From Plantactinospora sp. BC1 (GTDB lineage Bacteria; Actinomycetota; Actinomycetes; Mycobacteriales; Micromonosporaceae): a stretch of DNA of 64,000 nucleotides. Positions 22,703 to 34,320 of this stretch are shown here, in pieces (the first letter of the stretch is position 1; the number at the start of each line of letters is the position of its first letter). The DNA lies in contig NZ_CP028158.1 of the NCBI RefSeq assembly GCF_003030345.1, positions 620,001-684,000 on the forward strand. Direction: 5' to 3'. The notes under the pieces are model-generated. The model was not told the origin of the DNA, searched no databases, and saw only the letters and a program-made list of their open reading frames with translations. Made by a program: the position numbers and the translations under genes.

Positions 22703-22892
22703 AACCGACGATCATCCGGATCCGGCCCGCCCGGAGCAAACCGGACCGGCGCCCGGGCGTGGCGGGCCGGCGGCAGCGGGGCCGGACATAACGGCCCGTC
22801 CTCCGAATTGCGCCCGCCAGGTTGCTGACCGCCCGTTTGAACCCGATCGGGACGGGAAGGCCCGGGCAGCGCGGACGAGGGAGGTGGGCCCG

Positions 22893-24305
22893 GTGCGGGA
22901 GACACAGGAGTGGCTGGCCGCGGGTGGGTCCGGGCTCCCCGGACCGGACCGCATCGTCTCGGCGGAGAGCACCGGCCGGGTGCTGTTGGCCGTGGCGTCC
23001 CGCGCGGTCCGTGGCCAGGACTGCGCCGATCTCGGGTACCACCCGCTGCTGTCGCGCTTCCGGGGCGCGCCGGAGGCGGTACGCCGCTCCGCGCTGGCCC
23101 GGGCGGCCACCCGGACGGCGCTCACCGCCGAGCAGGCCGGGGCGCTCGACGCCGACCGGGTGGCCCGGTGGATGGTCGAGCACTACCCGCCGCGCTGGTA
23201 CCCCGGTGTCGTGATCGGCTCCCCGCACGGCGGAGCGGTCCACCTGGCCACCGCGATGGGCGTGCCCTGGCTGCCGGCCGGCTTCGAGGTGTCGGTGCAG
23301 TGGCCGGAGGGCCGGGTCGACCGACCGGGCGAGGCGTCGGCGTACGGCGGTCGGGTCGCGGCCCGGGTGATCGCAGGCAACCCGGGGGTACGCGTACGGC
23401 AGGTGCACGATCCGGCCGGTCGGGGCGTACTGGCCGGCTCGACGGTCTCCCTGGTGGTCCGCTGGGACCGGCTGCCGGAGGCGTACCGGGAGTTCCTCGG
23501 CAGCCGGCTGGCGCCGGGGGCCCCGGTGCTGCTGCTGCGGGACGTGCGCACCTGGCCGGTGGTCGACGCGGGTGACGGGCACAGCTTCCAGCTCGGCGGG
23601 CCGGTCAGCGGGCTGGAGCCGGCCGACTTCCGGGCCGGCAGTGAACTGCTCGGGCAGGTGCTGCGCGGGGCCGGCGGTGACGGGGCGAGTTGGGACGCTC
23701 CGGAGGGCGGCCGACCCGGATACGCCGAACAGGGCGTCGAGCCCGGTTTTGAGACGAGTCTGCTGGACTGGGTACGCGGCGCGGGCAGCCCGCTGCACCG
23801 GGTGCTCTTCCCGGGCCCGGACGCGCTCAGTGCCGCCGCCGCGGACGTGTACCGGAGCTGGCTGCGCGGGGCCGGCAAGAGCGGGGACCGCTGCGTGGTG
23901 GAGTGCGGGCGGCTGATCGACCCGTGGCAGGTGGTCCGGGCCGGCCTGGTGCCGTACTGGTGCGAGAACGCCACCGCGCGCAGCGTGGCCGGGGCGGAGT
24001 GGTGGCTCGCCGGCAGTGCCCCGTTCAGCTCGCTGGACGTACTCCCGGAGCCGCCGGGGCTGCGCTCGCCGGCCCTGGCCGGACTGCCGCAGTGGCTCGC
24101 GGTGGCCTCGTTCGGGCGCCGTCGCCGGGCCGTGGACCGGGTCGCCGCCCGGGGCTACCCGGTGACCTCGGTGGCCACCCGGCACGCCACGGAGGTACTC
24201 CGGAACCAGCCGTACGACCTGCCGGCACCCGCGCCGCTGCGGGTGGTGGAGGCGCTGGCCGGGCTGCGCGCCAGCGGTACCCCGCAGGGTCTGCTGGTCT
24301 GCTGA
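22893..24305 (+). CDS. Hypothetical 470-residue protein
   Basis: I do not recognise a named family. GAGGGAGG sits eight bases before GTG 22893, which decides it over GTG 22884. There is no signal peptide or membrane segment. A striking element is the GVVIGSPHGGAVHLATAMGVPWLP region (about residues 105-130), whose small-residue/His-Gly-Gly turn recalls an alpha/beta-hydrolase elbow but lacks a clear G-x-S-x-G. Codon use is like its neighbours, so recent transfer is unlikely. It is a single gene 226 bases upstream of the sigma factor gene. Confidence 0.65.
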   Translation: MRETQEWLAAGGSGLPGPDRIVSAESTGRVLLAVASRAVRGQDCADLGYHPLLSRFRGAPEAVRRSALARAATRTALTAEQAGALDADRVARWMVEHYPPRWYPGVVIGSPHGGAVHLATAMGVPWLPAGFEVSVQWPEGRVDRPGEASAYGGRVAARVIAGNPGVRVRQVHDPAGRGVLAGSTVSLVVRWDRLPEAYREFLGSRLAPGAPVLLLRDVRTWPVVDAGDGHSFQLGGPVSGLEPADFRAGSELLGQVLRGAGGDGASWDAPEGGRPGYAEQGVEPGFETSLLDWVRGAGSPLHRVLFPGPDALSAAAADVYRSWLRGAGKSGDRCVVECGRLIDPWQVVRAGLVPYWCENATARSVAGAEWWLAGSAPFSSLDVLPEPPGLRSPALAGLPQWLAVASFGRRRRAVDRVAARGYPVTSVATRHATEVLRNQPYDLPAPAPLRVVEALAGLRASGTPQGLLVC

Positions 24306-24531: not shown

Positions 24532-25668
24532 ATGTTCGGACAGATCACCACCACACCACCGGCCGAGCGGGGGCTGGAGGACCTGGACGCGGCCGCTCTG
24601 GCGTACGCGGCGCGGATCGCCGGCCTGCCGCCGGAACGCCGGCAGGAGGCCCGGGACGACCTCGTCCGGTTCGCCCTGCCGTTCGCCGGCAGGTTGGCCC
24701 GGCGCTACCGGGGCCGGGGTGAACCACTGGAGGACCTGGAACAGGTGGCGCGGTTGGGCCTGGTGAACGCGGTCGACCGGTACGACCCGGAACGGGGCTC
24801 GTTCACCGCGTACGCCGCGATCACCATCGTCGGCGAGATCAAACGGCACTTCCGGGACCGGACCTGGGGTGTGCACGTACCCCGGCGGCTGCGCGACCTG
24901 ATCCTGGAGGTCGGCCAGGCGACGGCGGCGCTGACCAGCGAGCTGTCCCGGGCGCCGAGCGTGGCCGAGTTGGCCGCCCGGCTGGAGACGCCGGAGGAGG
25001 AGATCCTCGCGGCGCTGGAGTCGGCGGCCGGCTACAGTCCGGCCTCGCTGAACGCCCCGGTCGGCGGGGAGAGTTCGGCGGAGTTCGGCGACCTCGTCGG
25101 CGAGTCCGACACCGACCTCGAGTCGGTCGACGACCGGGTGACGGTCAGCGGGCTGCTCGGCCGGCTGCCCTGGCGGGAGCGGCGGATCCTGGCGATGCGC
25201 TTCTACGGCAACCAGACCCAGGCCGAGATCGCCGCCCGGTTCGGCATCTCGCAGATGCACGTCTCCCGGCTGCTCTCCCGGGCGCTCACCTGGCTGCGGC
25301 AGGCGATGCTCGCCGACTCGCCGGCCCCGTGGCAGGCCGGCGGGGCCGAGGCGGGTGGCGCGCCGGCCCGGCTCGAGGTGCGCCAGGCGGGGGAGCGGGT
25401 GGTGGTCGAGGTGACCGGGGAGATCGACCGGGAGACCGCGGAGCAGTTGCGCCAGGCGGTGGTCGAGGCGGTCGCCGACGGGCATCCGACGGAAGTGGCG
25501 ATCGACCTGACCGACGTGGCGAAGCTGGACGGGCCGGCGCTGGCCGCCCTGGTCGCCGGCCGGGACGCCGCACATCGGGCCGGGGTCCGGTGGCGGCTGG
25601 CTCGGGCGCAACCGGTGGTGCAGCATTCGCTCAGCGCCGCCGGCCTGGTCGCGTTGCCGGCGGACTGA
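24532..25668 (+). CDS. SigB/SigF-type RNA polymerase sigma factor fused to a STAS domain
   Basis: 378 residues. Residues 1-265 form a SigB/F/G-family sigma factor: region 2 (LVNAVDRYDPERGSFTAYAAITIVGEIKRHFRD), region 3, region 4 (QAEIAARFGISQMHVSRLLSRAL). A linker leads to a C-terminal STAS fold (residues 280-378; EVTGEIDRETAEQLRQAV, VAIDLTDVAKLDGPALAALV). In anti-anti-sigma STAS proteins the residue after the conserved Asp is the phosphorylated Ser; here it is Gly (LDGPAL), so this domain is probably not switched by kinase phosphorylation. The fusion suggests that the sigma factor carries its own partner-binding module. GAGGGAGG precedes the ATG. Confidence 0.88.
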   Translation: MFGQITTTPPAERGLEDLDAAALAYAARIAGLPPERRQEARDDLVRFALPFAGRLARRYRGRGEPLEDLEQVARLGLVNAVDRYDPERGSFTAYAAITIVGEIKRHFRDRTWGVHVPRRLRDLILEVGQATAALTSELSRAPSVAELAARLETPEEEILAALESAAGYSPASLNAPVGGESSAEFGDLVGESDTDLESVDDRVTVSGLLGRLPWRERRILAMRFYGNQTQAEIAARFGISQMHVSRLLSRALTWLRQAMLADSPAPWQAGGAEAGGAPARLEVRQAGERVVVEVTGEIDRETAEQLRQAVVEAVADGHPTEVAIDLTDVAKLDGPALAALVAGRDAAHRAGVRWRLARAQPVVQHSLSAAGLVALPAD

Positions 25669-25704: not shown

Positions 25705-27756
25705 TCATCGGCCCTCCTCCTCTTCCGGCCGGTCGTCGCCGGTCCGCCGGCCGGTCCGCCACCGAGGGCTCTCCGGGCCACCCCGGGCGGTGTCGTCGAC
25801 GTTCTCGTCGGGCTCGCTCGGCTCGAACGCCGGCCGGCGTACCTCGTGCGGCTCCGGTACCTCGATCGGCCGGGCACCGGAGTCGGCCGGCGGGTGGTGC
25901 GCGACGGCGGCGTCCGCGCCGTGCGCCCCCTCCGGGGCCGGGACCTCGCCCTCGGGGTGCGGCGTCTCGTGCCGCAGCTCGTCGCGGGCCCCCTGGGGTG
26001 GTCGGGTGGACCGCTGCGGCAGGTCCCGGCCGAGGTCGGCGACGAGCGGGCCGTACTTCGCGTCGAAGGCGGGCCGCTCCGACCGGATCCTGGGCATCCG
26101 GTCGAAGTTGCGCAGCGGCGGCGGGGAGGTGGTCGCCCACTCCAGGGAGTTGCCGAAGCCCCAGGGGTCGTCGACCGCCACCATCCGGCCGAACCGCCAC
26201 GACTTCCAGACGTTGTAGAGGAAGAAGAGCGTGGAGAAGCCGAGTACGAAGGAGCTGATCGTGGAGAAGGTGTTCAGCGCGGTGAAGCCGTCGGTCGGCA
26301 GGTAGTCGGCGTACCGGCGGGGCATCCCCTCGTTGCCCAGCCAGTGGTGCACCAGGAAGGTGCCGTGGAAGCCGAGGAACATGGTCCAGAAGTGGGCCCG
26401 GCCGAGGCGCTCGTCGAGGAGCCGGCCGGTCATCTTCGGGAACCAGAAGTAGACCCCGGCGAAGGCGGCGAAGACGATGGTGCCGAAGAGTACGTAGTGG
26501 AAGTGCGCCACCACGAAATAGGTGTCGTGGGTGTGGAAGTCCACCGGCGGGCTGGCCAGCAGCACCCCGGTCAACCCGCCGAAGAGGAAGGTGACCAGGA
26601 ACCCGATCGAGAAGAGCATCGGCGTCTCGAAGGTGAGCTGCCCCTTCCACATCGTGCCGATCCAGTTGAAGAACTTCACCCCGGTCGGTACGGCGATCAG
26701 ATAGCTCAGCCAGCTGAAGAACGGCAGCAGTACCTGGCCGGTGCCGAACATGTGGTGTGCCCAGACGGTCATCGACAGGATCGTGATCGCGATGGTGGCG
26801 GCGACCAGCCCCTTGTAGCCGAAGATCGGCTTGCGGGCGAAGACCGGGATGACCTCGGTGATGATGCCGAAGAACGGCAGCGCCACGATGTAGACCTCGG
26901 GATGGCCGAAGAACCAGAAGAGGTGCTGCCAGAGCAGCGGGCCGCCGTTGATCGGGTCGTAGACGTGCGCGCCGATCCGGCGGTCGGCGTAGAGCGCGAG
27001 CAGCGCGGCGGCGAGCAGCGGGAAGACGAGTACCACCAGCAGGGCGGTGAAGAGCATGTTCCAGGTGAAGATCGGCATCCGGAACATGGTCATCCCGGGC
27101 GCCCGCAGGGTCAGGATGGTGGTGATCAGGTTGACCGCGCCGAGGATGGTGCCGAGGCCGGAGAGGACCAGTCCGATCACCCACATGTCCGGGCCGATCC
27201 CCGGCGAGTGCTGGTCCCGGCTCAGCGGGGTGTACGCGGTCCAGCCGAAGTCCGCCGAGCCGTTCGGGGTGAGGAAGCCGGCCAGCACCAGCGAACCGCC
27301 GAGCAGGTAGAGCCAGTACGCCAGCGCGTTGAGCCGGGGGAACGACACGTCCGGGGCGCCGATCTGCAACGGTACGACGTAGTTGCCGAAGGCGAACGCC
27401 AGCGGGGTGGCGAAGAGCAGCAACATGATCGTGCCGTGCCCGGTGAAGAGCTGGTTGTACTGCTCGGGGGAGAGGAACTGCATTCCCGGCCGGCCCAGTT
27501 CGGCGCGCATCAGCATCGCCATCGCGCCGGCGATGACGAAGAAGCCGAACGCCGTGGTGAGGTAGAGCAGGCCGATCTGCTTGGCGTCGGTGGTGCCGAG
27601 CAGCCGGATCAGGGTGCTGCCCCGGATCGCCCTGCGGATCTGGCCCGGGTGGCCGCCGGACCGGGAGGGTGCCAGGACCAGCGGCCCGCGCTCCCGCCCC
27701 TGCTCCCGATCCTCCCCGCGCTCCCGCTCGGGTTCGGTGACCGCCCGCTTCGGCAT
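25705..27756 (-). CDS. ctaD: Cytochrome c oxidase subunit I
   Basis: 683 residues; the core of about 550 residues has 12 membrane helices. Haem and copper ligands are visible: GHGTIM (low-spin haem), HPEVY (CuB His with the D-channel Glu of the GHPEVY motif), VWAHHMF, and HFHYVLF. The D-channel entry Asp is in [12 protein letters not shown] roughly 110-residue Pro/Glu/His-rich tail follows the last helix, longer than in most actinobacterial CtaD proteins. No other cox gene lies nearby, so this is probably an extra copy. A SigB/F-type promoter lies 46 bases upstream. Confidence 0.93.
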
Positions 27757-27801: not shown

Positions 27802-27825
27802 TACCCGGTAAACCGACGGCGAAAC
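27802..27825 (-). promoter_or_regulatory. SigB/F-type promoter of ctaD
   Basis: On the minus strand GTTT (27825-27822) is followed after 15 bases by GGGTA (27806-27802). This exactly matches the GTTT-N15-GGGTA pattern of SigB/SigF-class promoters. Transcription would begin near 27795, about 40 bases before the ctaD ATG. The only SigB/F-class sigma gene in the window ends about 2 kb away. Confidence 0.65.
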
Positions 27826-32822: not shown

Positions 32823-32846
32823 GTTTGTCCACCCGGCGCTCGGGTA
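32823..32846 (+). promoter_or_regulatory. SigB/F-type promoter of the GAF-ANTAR gene
   Basis: GTTT at 32823-32826, 15 bases, GGGTA at 32842-32846. It has the same layout as the ctaD promoter. Predicted transcription start is near 32853, leaving a leader of about 115 bases that contains a 24-codon open frame. Confidence 0.65.
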
Positions 32847-32899: not shown

Positions 32900-32974
32900 A
32901 TGAGACAGGCGACGGTGCGAACCGGACGTACCGCGGGGGGCGCGGTGGTGGCGGGGGTTCCGGAACGGTGCTGA
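32900..32974 (+). CDS. Possible 24-codon leader peptide upstream of the GAF-ANTAR gene
   Basis: ATG 32900 follows GGAGAGG with a good spacing and opens a frame of 24 codons (MRQATVRTGRTAGG...). Its TGA at 32972-32974 lies two bases after the GTG (32968-32970) of the ANTAR gene, so translation of the two would be coupled. The main gene itself has no clear ribosome binding site, which favours coupling. It may be a regulatory upstream frame with no protein function. Confidence 0.4.
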   Translation: MRQATVRTGRTAGGAVVAGVPERC

Positions 32975-33714
32975 GGCTGAGGACGACGACGGAGCCGTCG
33001 ACCGAAGCCCCGGGCGTGCTGGAGACCGCCGCCCTGCTCCGCGAAGTGACTGCCGGACTGATCGCGAGCGACGACTTCGACGCCGCGCTGGACCGGCTGG
33101 TACGTACCGTCCGGGACGCCATCCCAGCGGTGAGCTGGTGCGGCGTCACTGTGTTGCGGGCCGGAGCGCCCGCCTCGGTCGCGGCCTCGGAGCCCCGACT
33201 CGGCGACCTCGACGACGTCCGGCACGGCTCGGACGGTCCGGCGATGACGGCGATCCGCTCCCGGGAGATGGTCTGGTCGGCGGACCTGCGTACCGAGACC
33301 CGGTGGCGGCCGTGGACCGGCCGGGCGCTGGCGCTGGGCGTACGCGGGGTGCTCGCCGTACCGGTCGACGTCGACGAGCACGTGGTCGGGTCGATCAACC
33401 TGTACGCCCGCGAGCCCGGCGTGCTGACCGCCAGTCAACAGCTCACCGCGATGCTGCTCGCCGAACACGTCGGGTTGCTGCTCGGCGCGGTGCGGGACCG
33501 GTCCCGGCAGACCGAGCTCGCCGACGCGGCCGACGACACGCTCTCGGCCGGTCAGGTCATCGACCAGGCGGTGGGGGTTATCATGACCCAACGTGGCTGT
33601 CCGGCCACGGAGGCGCTACGGGTGTTGCGGTCCGCCTCGGCGGCGCTGGCCATTCCGTTGCGGGACGTGGCCGAGCGGCTGGTCACCTCGGTGGCCCGTC
33701 GTCGCGACAACTGA
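32968..33714 (+). CDS. GAF and ANTAR domain regulator
   Basis: 248 residues. Residues 20-165 form a GAF sensor domain (DFDAALDRLVRTVRDAIPAVSWCGVTVL). The C-terminal 55 residues are an ANTAR RNA-binding domain (VIDQAVGVIMTQRGCPATEALRVLRSASAAL with the conserved A-x-G-x-I/L-M signature). ANTAR proteins bind dual hairpins in nascent transcripts and prevent termination; GAF-linked ones are frequent in actinobacteria. Ligand and targets are unknown. The SigB/F-type promoter suggests stress-dependent expression. Confidence 0.85.
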   Translation: MLRLRTTTEPSTEAPGVLETAALLREVTAGLIASDDFDAALDRLVRTVRDAIPAVSWCGVTVLRAGAPASVAASEPRLGDLDDVRHGSDGPAMTAIRSREMVWSADLRTETRWRPWTGRALALGVRGVLAVPVDVDEHVVGSINLYAREPGVLTASQQLTAMLLAEHVGLLLGAVRDRSRQTELADAADDTLSAGQVIDQAVGVIMTQRGCPATEALRVLRSASAALAIPLRDVAERLVTSVARRRDN

Positions 33715-33813: not shown

Positions 33814-34320
33814 ATGCAGAGCCGCCTACGGGTGCACGGTCATCCGATCCAGCCGATGCTGGTGACCTTTCCGTTCGGCCTGTTCGTCTGCGCCACGGTC
33901 TTCGACCTGGCCGACGTGGTCGGCGGCCCGGCGATCCTCGGGCTGGTCGGCTACTGGACGGCGGTGGCGGCGCTGGTCGCGGGCGGTCTCGCCACGGCGG
34001 CCGGCATGATCGATCTCTGGGACGTGCCCGGTGATCCGACCCGGCGCACCGCTATCACCTTCAACCTGGTGAACGCCGCCGTGGCGGTGCTCTTCGTCTT
34101 CGCCTGCCTGATCAGGTCCGGCGTGCCGGAGCACGGGGCGAACGCCGGCCTGGTCGCGGTCGAGCTGCTCGGCCTGCTGGTGGGCGCGGTCGGGGTACGG
34201 CTCGGCGGCAGCCTGGTGCGGCAGTTCGACCAGGGGCGTACCGAGCCGACGAGCTTCGACGGGTTCGGCCCGCCGGCCAGTTCGGTCGCCGGGGGCTTCG
34301 GCCGACGTCGCGGCGGCTGA
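33814..34320 (+). CDS. DUF2231 membrane protein
   Basis: 168 residues with four membrane helices. The start RVHGHPIQPMLVTFPFGLFVCATVFDL is the DUF2231 signature (HP-hydrophobic-HFP-like). The family's function is not established; members often sit in redox or haem contexts. GGGAGG precedes the ATG by eight bases. A short polar tail ends the protein. Probable SigB/F control links it with ctaD and the GAF-ANTAR gene. Confidence 0.83.
   Translation: MQSRLRVHGHPIQPMLVTFPFGLFVCATVFDLADVVGGPAILGLVGYWTAVAALVAGGLATAAGMIDLWDVPGDPTRRTAITFNLVNAAVAVLFVFACLIRSGVPEHGANAGLVAVELLGLLVGAVGVRLGGSLVRQFDQGRTEPTSFDGFGPPASSVAGGFGRRRGG

What the first reader, a model, noticed from the sequence alone, without database searches (positions are those of the whole stretch)
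24532..25668. Sigma factor carrying its own STAS domain with the phosphosite lost
Seen: a full SigB/F-type sigma factor continues into a STAS domain, where the residue after the conserved Asp (Ser in phosphorylatable anti-anti-sigma factors) is Gly (LDGPAL). Known: SigB/F sigma factors are normally held by separate anti-sigma kinases and freed by separate STAS proteins. Inference: the fusion places the antagonist in cis and may lock or redirect anti-sigma binding without phosphorylation, giving a different regulatory logic.
Basis: partly seen in the sequence, partly recalled or inferred. Interest (0 to 1): 0.75.

Follow-up and report, generated by a model that had tools for sequence, protein, structure and literature searches.

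The report
Sigma factor with built-in STAS domain
This gene makes a stress-type sigma factor (a protein that tells RNA polymerase which genes to read) with a regulatory docking domain joined to its end; the same fusion, called sigma-SsdA, was described in a related bacterium in 2023, and here it appears without its usual partner gene beside it and probably switches on a neighbouring respiratory oxidase gene.

Summary
Window 24532-25668 (+) encodes a full SigB/F/G sigma factor (residues 38-259) fused to a SpoIIAA/RsbV-class STAS domain (282-373). Gly334 replaces the phosphorylated Ser. Of 73 sigma-STAS ORFs compared (window included), 0 have Ser/Thr at that site.

The architecture is not new: it is sigma-SsdA of Actinoplanes missouriensis (Tezuka 2023, PMC10733313). 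There the STAS is what the RsbW-like anti-sigma SipA grips. That supports anti-sigma binding without phosphorylation, but not a self-releasing "antagonist in cis".

New here: (1) The window locus has no sipA. Six of seven genomes of its genus, and three of three of another, keep the STAS without a close SipA; the window's own genome has two SipA homologues elsewhere. (2) Some Micromonospora lost the STAS, probably at least twice, mostly while keeping SipA, so the two are not obligately paired. (3) A sigma-SsdA-type promoter precedes the linked aa3 oxidase gene coxI in 41 of 41 loci (1 of 28 unlinked coxI genes), and sipA in 32 of 51. The linked oxidase is a likely target.

Verdict: a new member of a known kind, with an unidentified partner in this genus.

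The parts
24532..25668 (+). CDS of the sigma-STAS fusion, 378 aa (sigma-SsdA orthologue)
   Evidence: orthologues
24643..25308 (+). SigB/F/G sigma factor part, residues 38-259
   Evidence: TIGR02980 253.6 bits; Pfam regions 2, 3, 4; fold search lists S. aureus SigB in RNAP among the best matches
25309..25374 (+). Linker, residues 260-281, low model confidence at 270-277
   Evidence: AlphaFold2 pLDDT below 50 at 270-277
25375..25650 (+). STAS domain, residues 282-373
   Evidence: PF01740 and PF13466; SpoIIAA/RsbV fold
25528..25533 (+). Asp333-Gly334: Gly in place of the phosphorylated Ser (SpoIIAA Ser58)
   Evidence: alignment to 1auz; 0 of 73 ORFs with Ser/Thr
25705..27756 (-). Linked coxI/ctaD, aa3-type cytochrome c oxidase subunit I, convergent with the sigma gene
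   Evidence: NF050116 960.5 bits, over its cut-off of 880; PF00115
27802..27825 (-). Sigma-SsdA-type promoter GTTT-N14-CGGGTA, 45 nt upstream of the coxI ATG
   Evidence: exact match to the published consensus; relaxed form at about the same place in 41 of 41 linked coxI genes, 1 of 28 unlinked
22884..24305 (+). Conserved upstream gene, 473 aa, no Pfam or NCBIfam match

Best explanation
The gene is an orthologue of sigma-SsdA: a general/oxidative-stress SigB-type sigma factor whose C-terminal STAS has lost the phosphosite and serves as a docking handle for an RsbW-like anti-sigma protein, without the Ser phosphorylation of classical partner switching. Shown here: the architecture, family relationship, site loss, purifying selection on the STAS, absence of sipA at this locus, and a conserved sigma-SsdA-type promoter before the linked oxidase gene (and before sipA in 32 of 51 loci that have it). 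Shown by others in A. missouriensis: the STAS is what SipA binds. Inferred: that docking is also the role of the STAS here, that in this genus the partner is unlinked (a SipA homologue elsewhere, as in G000 at 293754 and 4957588, or another RsbW-type protein), and that this sigma factor drives the linked aa3 oxidase subunit I.
For: Domain content and fold. Site residue in 73 STAS-bearing ORFs: A61 G7 P2 H1 M1 V1. Published domain mapping. STAS dN/dS 0.22 in this genus, 0.09 in g11, 0.11 in Micromonospora; sigma part 0.012-0.021. Of four A. missouriensis suppressor positions read as loss of function (D68N, F91S, S100P, L372P), Asp68, Phe91 and Leu372 are the same residues in the window (residue 100 is Val) and invariant in A2 (26 rows) or A3 (15 rows), if numbering is collinear. 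Promoter: 41 of 41 linked coxI upstreams, Markov control mean 0.45 and at most 3; in the own genome 2 of 2 linked COX1 genes and 0 of 2 unlinked; 1 of 28 unlinked coxI genes in the control set.
Against: No sipA at the locus, and no close SipA in 6 of 7 genus members or 3 of 3 g11 genomes, so the known partner cannot explain why the STAS is kept there. Micromonospora that lost the STAS mostly keep SipA (8 of 11 genomes; 6 of 7 loci), which a strict SipA-STAS pairing does not predict. The genome has three SigB/F/G sigma factors over the family cut-off, so the promoter need not belong to this one. No binding or expression was measured here.
Confidence: 0.68

Rival explanations
1. Constitutive self-antagonist: like the Ser-to-Ala forms of SpoIIAA, the unphosphorylatable STAS always binds anti-sigma kinases, keeping its own sigma (or other sigmas) free.
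For: The site residue is Ala in 61 of 73 ORFs, and a deposited SpoIIAA chain (1tid) also carries Ala there; the GE[IV]DR motif is kept in 15 of 15 aligned rows.
Against: In A. missouriensis mutations in ssdA suppress the sipA defect, and the authors treat the sipA deletion strain as having a hyper-active sigma, so SipA bound to the STAS seems to inhibit rather than free it; the sigma domain alone did not bind SipA.
Confidence: 0.15
2. Drift: where SipA has been lost, the STAS is a leftover under weakening constraint and has no partner.
For: STAS dN/dS in the window genus is about twice that in Micromonospora (0.22 against 0.11, no error bars); the site loop is remodelled in g1 (DGPA), g11 (E[HP]GG) and G007 (HAAA), all without sipA at the locus; the STAS was lost outright in some Micromonospora.
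Against: dN/dS stays well below 1, and is 0.09 in g11, which lacks SipA; the domain is kept in 7 of 7 and 3 of 3 genomes of those genera; the seven g50 loci also lack sipA, yet six of them keep DAAG.
Confidence: 0.22
3. The STAS senses a small molecule or has another non-RsbW role.
For: STAS folds also occur in transporters and stressosome proteins; the paper's authors leave room for modifications or other molecules.
Against: The closest folds are anti-sigma antagonists; no ligand evidence.
Confidence: 0.08

Closest known systems
sigma-SsdA/SipA of Actinoplanes missouriensis (Tezuka et al. 2023, PMC10733313)
   Same: SigB/F/G domain plus C-terminal STAS, nearly identical length (379 and 378 aa) and domain borders (37-260/282-377 against 38-259/282-373); coxI (ctaD) next to the gene, as the authors note for Micromonospora
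   Different: No sipA at this locus; the site loop is DGPA, whereas 54 of the 73 ORFs have DAAG or DAGG; the linked coxI carries the promoter. The paper's main text mentions ctaD only for synteny.
Classical partner switching (SigF-SpoIIAB-SpoIIAA, SigB-RsbW-RsbV; M. smegmatis SigF with RsfB Ser-63, PMC7693655 abstract)
   Same: Same sigma family and same STAS fold
   Different: STAS joined to the sigma rather than separate, and not phosphorylatable at the canonical Ser
STAS proteins without the Ser
   Same: Site lost: 9 of 21 STAS domains in this genome lack Ser/Thr there, both fusions included (site placed by eye)
   Different: Seven of those nine are not fused to a sigma factor

Membership tests
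SigB/SigF/SigG sigma factors | TIGR02980 over its curated cut-off; regions 2, 3 and 4 | tested here: met
   253.6 bits against 234.35; Pfam regions 2, 3, 4
STAS domain | Pfam model over cut-off; b-b-a-b-a-b-a fold | tested here: met
Phosphorylatable anti-anti-sigma factor (SpoIIAA/RsbV) | Ser/Thr after the conserved Asp | tested here: not met
   Gly334; 0 of 73 ORFs
sigma-SsdA | One chain with SigB/F/G and C-terminal STAS domains | tested here: met
   tree with Actinoplanes and Micromonospora homologues. The A. missouriensis sequence itself was not aligned.
sigma-SsdA/SipA system | sipA (STAS plus RsbW-like) at the locus | tested here: not met
   the only tblastn hit of 11 SipA queries in the window is the sigma gene's own STAS (E 1.6e-4); coxI to next gene 201 bp
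sigma-SsdA/SipA system | A SipA homologue somewhere in the genome | tested here: met
   G000:293754 and 4957588, E about 1e-107 (both are rows of the search profile, but one also finds the other at 265 bits); none at E 1e-95 or better in the other 6 genomes of the genus
sigma-SsdA/SipA system | Anti-sigma binds the STAS, not the sigma domain | not testable with these tools
   shown only in A. missouriensis
sigma-SsdA regulon | GnTT-n14-CGGGTA promoters at target genes | tested here: met
   linked coxI 41 of 41 in relaxed form; sipA 32 of 51; own-genome strict pattern 12 hits against 1 for the reversed pattern. Which sigma uses them is untested.

The most novel reading that the evidence does not exclude
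After SipA was lost in this genus, the phosphosite-free STAS tail was rewired to another, still unknown, regulator, giving a sigma factor controlled wholly through its tail without the canonical phosphorylation and dedicated in part to an alternative aa3 oxidase.
Probability: 0.3. Interest if true: 0.6.

Novelty: new member of a known kind. Interest (0 to 1): 0.42.

Why it matters
Sigma-SsdA is, by its authors' account, the first sigma factor with an anti-sigma antagonist domain, and they leave open how inhibition through that domain works. The natural variants found here (STAS kept without SipA; STAS lost with SipA kept) are ready-made tests of what the STAS does. The conserved promoter before the linked oxidase gene offers a concrete target and a reason why the two genes stay together. 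In M. smegmatis the SigF regulon also responds to loss of the aa3 oxidase (PMC7693655, abstract), so a tie between this sigma type and that oxidase may be more general.

Tried and rejected
Rejected: (a) that the fusion is a frame or assembly artefact: open in 7 of 7 genus genomes. (b) That STAS and SipA are simply lost together: in Micromonospora (handle genus g4; tables counted by hand), a SipA hit at E <= 1e-95 occurs in 47 of 49 genomes with the STAS and 8 of 11 without it; Fisher p 0.04, without correction for kinship, and a strong hit does not prove an intact gene. (c) That scrambling of the site loop marks loss of SipA: g1, g11 and G007 fit, but other loci without sipA keep DAxG. (d) That a copy of the lost STAS sits elsewhere in the STAS-less genomes: in 11 of 11 none; four of them have one weak hit (E 1e-9 to 1e-8, 33-38% identity) to a stand-alone STAS.

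Inconclusive: the fusion outside the family. In 396 phylum genomes, open matches covering both domains came only from two family members (G000, G009) at E <= 1e-90, a threshold that could hide diverged fusions; one further match spans both domains with two stops inside (G647), and the paper names one case in Nonomuraea. At up to one mismatch the promoter motif is only weakly enriched in the window as a whole (12 against 6.3 expected; 4 of 100 shuffles reach 12). SipA dN/dS was higher where the STAS is lost (median 0.43 against 0.28 in the sister clade), but ranges overlap, all 13 sequences with the STAS together give 0.36, and nothing was tested formally. The whole-protein model has pTM 0.33, so it says nothing on how the two halves touch. 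The sigma-STAS tree puts two STAS-less species together, unlike the neighbour-gene tree; the STAS-less rows lack those columns and the sigma part hardly varies, so I trust, for which I printed one support value only.

Rows dropped or doubled: the 80 loci include genes held in two collections (L079 and L326, L083 and L323); 40 of the 41 coxI upstream sequences are distinct. One search tested the 30 of 43 coxI matches that became loci; one is the window's own, and L370 was dropped because its anchor lies 425 nt from the expected place, which leaves 28, 1 with a motif (with L370 it would be 1 of 29). Neighbour controls used seven of the twelve window ORFs translated. L309 was left out of the tree. 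G190 and G254 had no sigma match at 1e-72 and were left out of the Micromonospora counts.

Full report
What is there. Window 24532-25668 (+) is one open frame of 378 aa: a SigB/F/G sigma factor (TIGR02980, 253.6 bits, residues 38-259) followed by a linker and a STAS domain (PF01740, 52.0 bits, residues 282-373). The whole-protein model matches S. aureus SigB in an RNA polymerase complex and other sigma factors (mean pLDDT 71.8, pTM 0.33). The STAS modelled alone (mean pLDDT 83.1) matches TM1442, SpoIIAA, RsbV, RsbS and RsfB. In the alignment to SpoIIAA (1auz, E 2.1e-4) window Gly334 stands at the phosphorylated Ser; Pro335 replaces the second Ser.

Site loss is family-wide. Of 80 sigma ORFs, one at each of 80 loci (at least two loci are the same gene held twice), 73 carry the STAS; the residue at the site is Ala 61, Gly 7, Pro 2, His 1, Met 1, Val 1, never Ser or Thr. 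The commonest loop is DAAG (33) or DAGG (21), so the site was probably lost early, to Ala, and the window's DGPA (7 of 7 in its genus) is a later change. Lack of the Ser is common in STAS domains in general: 9 of 21 in this genome (placed by eye).

It is already described in kind. Tezuka et al. 2023 (PMC10733313; I read the abstract, sections 8, 9, 11 and 14, and found passages, not the supplements) report sigma-SsdA of Actinoplanes missouriensis with this architecture and its inhibitor SipA (STAS plus RsbW-like domain). [quoted passage not shown] the sigma domain alone did not bind. They treat the sigma as hyper-active in the sipA deletion strain. They list orthologues in Actinoplanes, Pseudosporangium, Couchioplanes and Micromonospora and note ctaD between the two genes in Micromonospora. 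'Serine' has no occurrence in the main text, and the passages shown for phosphorylation and for residue names (12 of 15 places) do not discuss the STAS phosphosite. Of seven paper searches, the one that brought up this paper first was; the listings of the other six (titles and starts of abstracts) showed no other sigma-STAS fusion.

The window's genus lacks the usual partner. The gene after coxI starts 201 bp away; the only SipA hit in the window is the sigma gene's own STAS. With a SipA profile, G000 (the window's genome) has two strong homologues, at 293754 beside a second sigma-STAS gene and at 4957588 (both are rows of that profile). Among the other six genomes of the genus, four have only weaker full-length relatives (E 3e-37 to 1e-42) and two have only kinase-domain matches (E about 4e-17); g11 has only kinase-domain matches in three of three. 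At the locus itself a SipA-like ORF over 150 bits is absent in 7 of 7 of the genus and 3 of 3 of g11, and over the whole set it is present in 45 of 73 STAS-bearing loci. A second sigma-STAS gene at E <= 1e-72 is found only in G000 among the seven. The STAS is nevertheless under purifying selection in these genera (0.22 and 0.09; Micromonospora 0.11; pairwise Nei-Gojobori medians, no error bars).

The reverse case also exists. In Micromonospora, 11 of 60 genomes with the sigma gene match only to residue 275-298, at 89-94% identity; seven named loci (M. zingiberis, qiuiae, lutea, radicis, andamanensis, M. sp. CP22, rosaria) show the frame ending where the STAS should begin, with coxI and the 473-aa gene still beside it. 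No copy of the STAS lies elsewhere in 11 of 11 genomes. A tree of neighbour proteins puts M. rosaria apart from the other six, so there were probably at least two losses. SipA is a full-length ORF in six of the seven loci, with only a remnant in M. qiuiae (L076). In other genomes it is frameshifted (L062, L079, L082, which keep the STAS; G252, which does not), or only a weak kinase-half match is left (G186). The pairing seen in A. missouriensis is therefore not obligate.

A likely target. The published consensus GnTT-n14-CGGGTA matches exactly at 27802-27825 (-), 45 nt before the coxI ATG. A relaxed form (G.TT-N13-16-GGGTA) lies at about the same place in 41 of 41 linked coxI genes, the boxes conserved and the spacer not; Markov controls give 0.45 on average, at most 3. 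Neighbours: 0 of 27, 0 of 42, 0 of 37, 0 of 37 and 0 of 15 for five genes, 3 of 9 for a DUF2231 gene; the sigma gene itself 2 of 80 (start estimated); sipA 32 of 51 against 0.17 expected, in a 460-nt region about the start of its open frame. Of four COX1 genes in this genome the two beside sigma-STAS genes have it and the other two do not. Of 28 coxI genes not beside a sigma-STAS gene (27 from genomes without a match at E <= 1e-72 or from outside the family, one from G000), 1 has a motif, at another position. The own genome has 12 hits of a strict pattern against 1 for its reverse; ORFs just downstream include an OsmC-like protein (22.6 bits for its first 90 residues, under the Pfam cut-off of 27.5), a SelR (MsrB) protein and a cupin, in keeping with the oxidative-stress role in A. 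missouriensis; five of the nine pieces had no Pfam match. The genome has three SigB/F/G sigma factors over the cut-off, so the assignment to this one rests on linkage.

Reading. The STAS most likely works as a docking handle for an RsbW-like regulator, independent of the classical Ser phosphorylation; where sipA is kept and carries the promoter, the sigma would drive its own inhibitor. In this genus the partner is open. 

Noticed in passing
22884-24305 +: 473-aa protein with no Pfam or NCBIfam match, kept next to the sigma gene in Micromonospora, the window genus and three of the named Actinoplanes-type loci.
   Followed up: partly
L031:5734-8869 (G000:C1:293.7-296.9 kb): Second sigma-STAS locus in the same genome: a SipA homologue, two stand-alone STAS ORFs (one with DSS, phosphorylatable in principle) and the sigma-STAS gene, convergent with another coxI.
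   Followed up: partly
32823-32846 +: Second exact sigma-SsdA-type promoter in the window, 121 nt before a 248-aa ORF (32968-33714 +) without a Pfam match in its first 90 residues.
   Followed up: no
33814-34320 +: DUF2231 membrane protein gene with a relaxed form of the same promoter 68 nt upstream, in 3 of 9 loci tested; another DUF2231-like ORF (under the Pfam cut-off in its first 90 residues) follows one of the 12 strict genome hits.
   Followed up: no
L062, L079 (= L326), L082, L076: sipA frameshifted or reduced to a remnant in several Micromonospora; sequencing errors are not excluded.
   Followed up: partly
G000:C1:4957588-4958382 +: A second SipA homologue (280-aa frame) in the window's genome, near a stand-alone STAS gene (4957025 -); neither of the two sigma-STAS genes found in this genome is nearby.
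   Followed up: no
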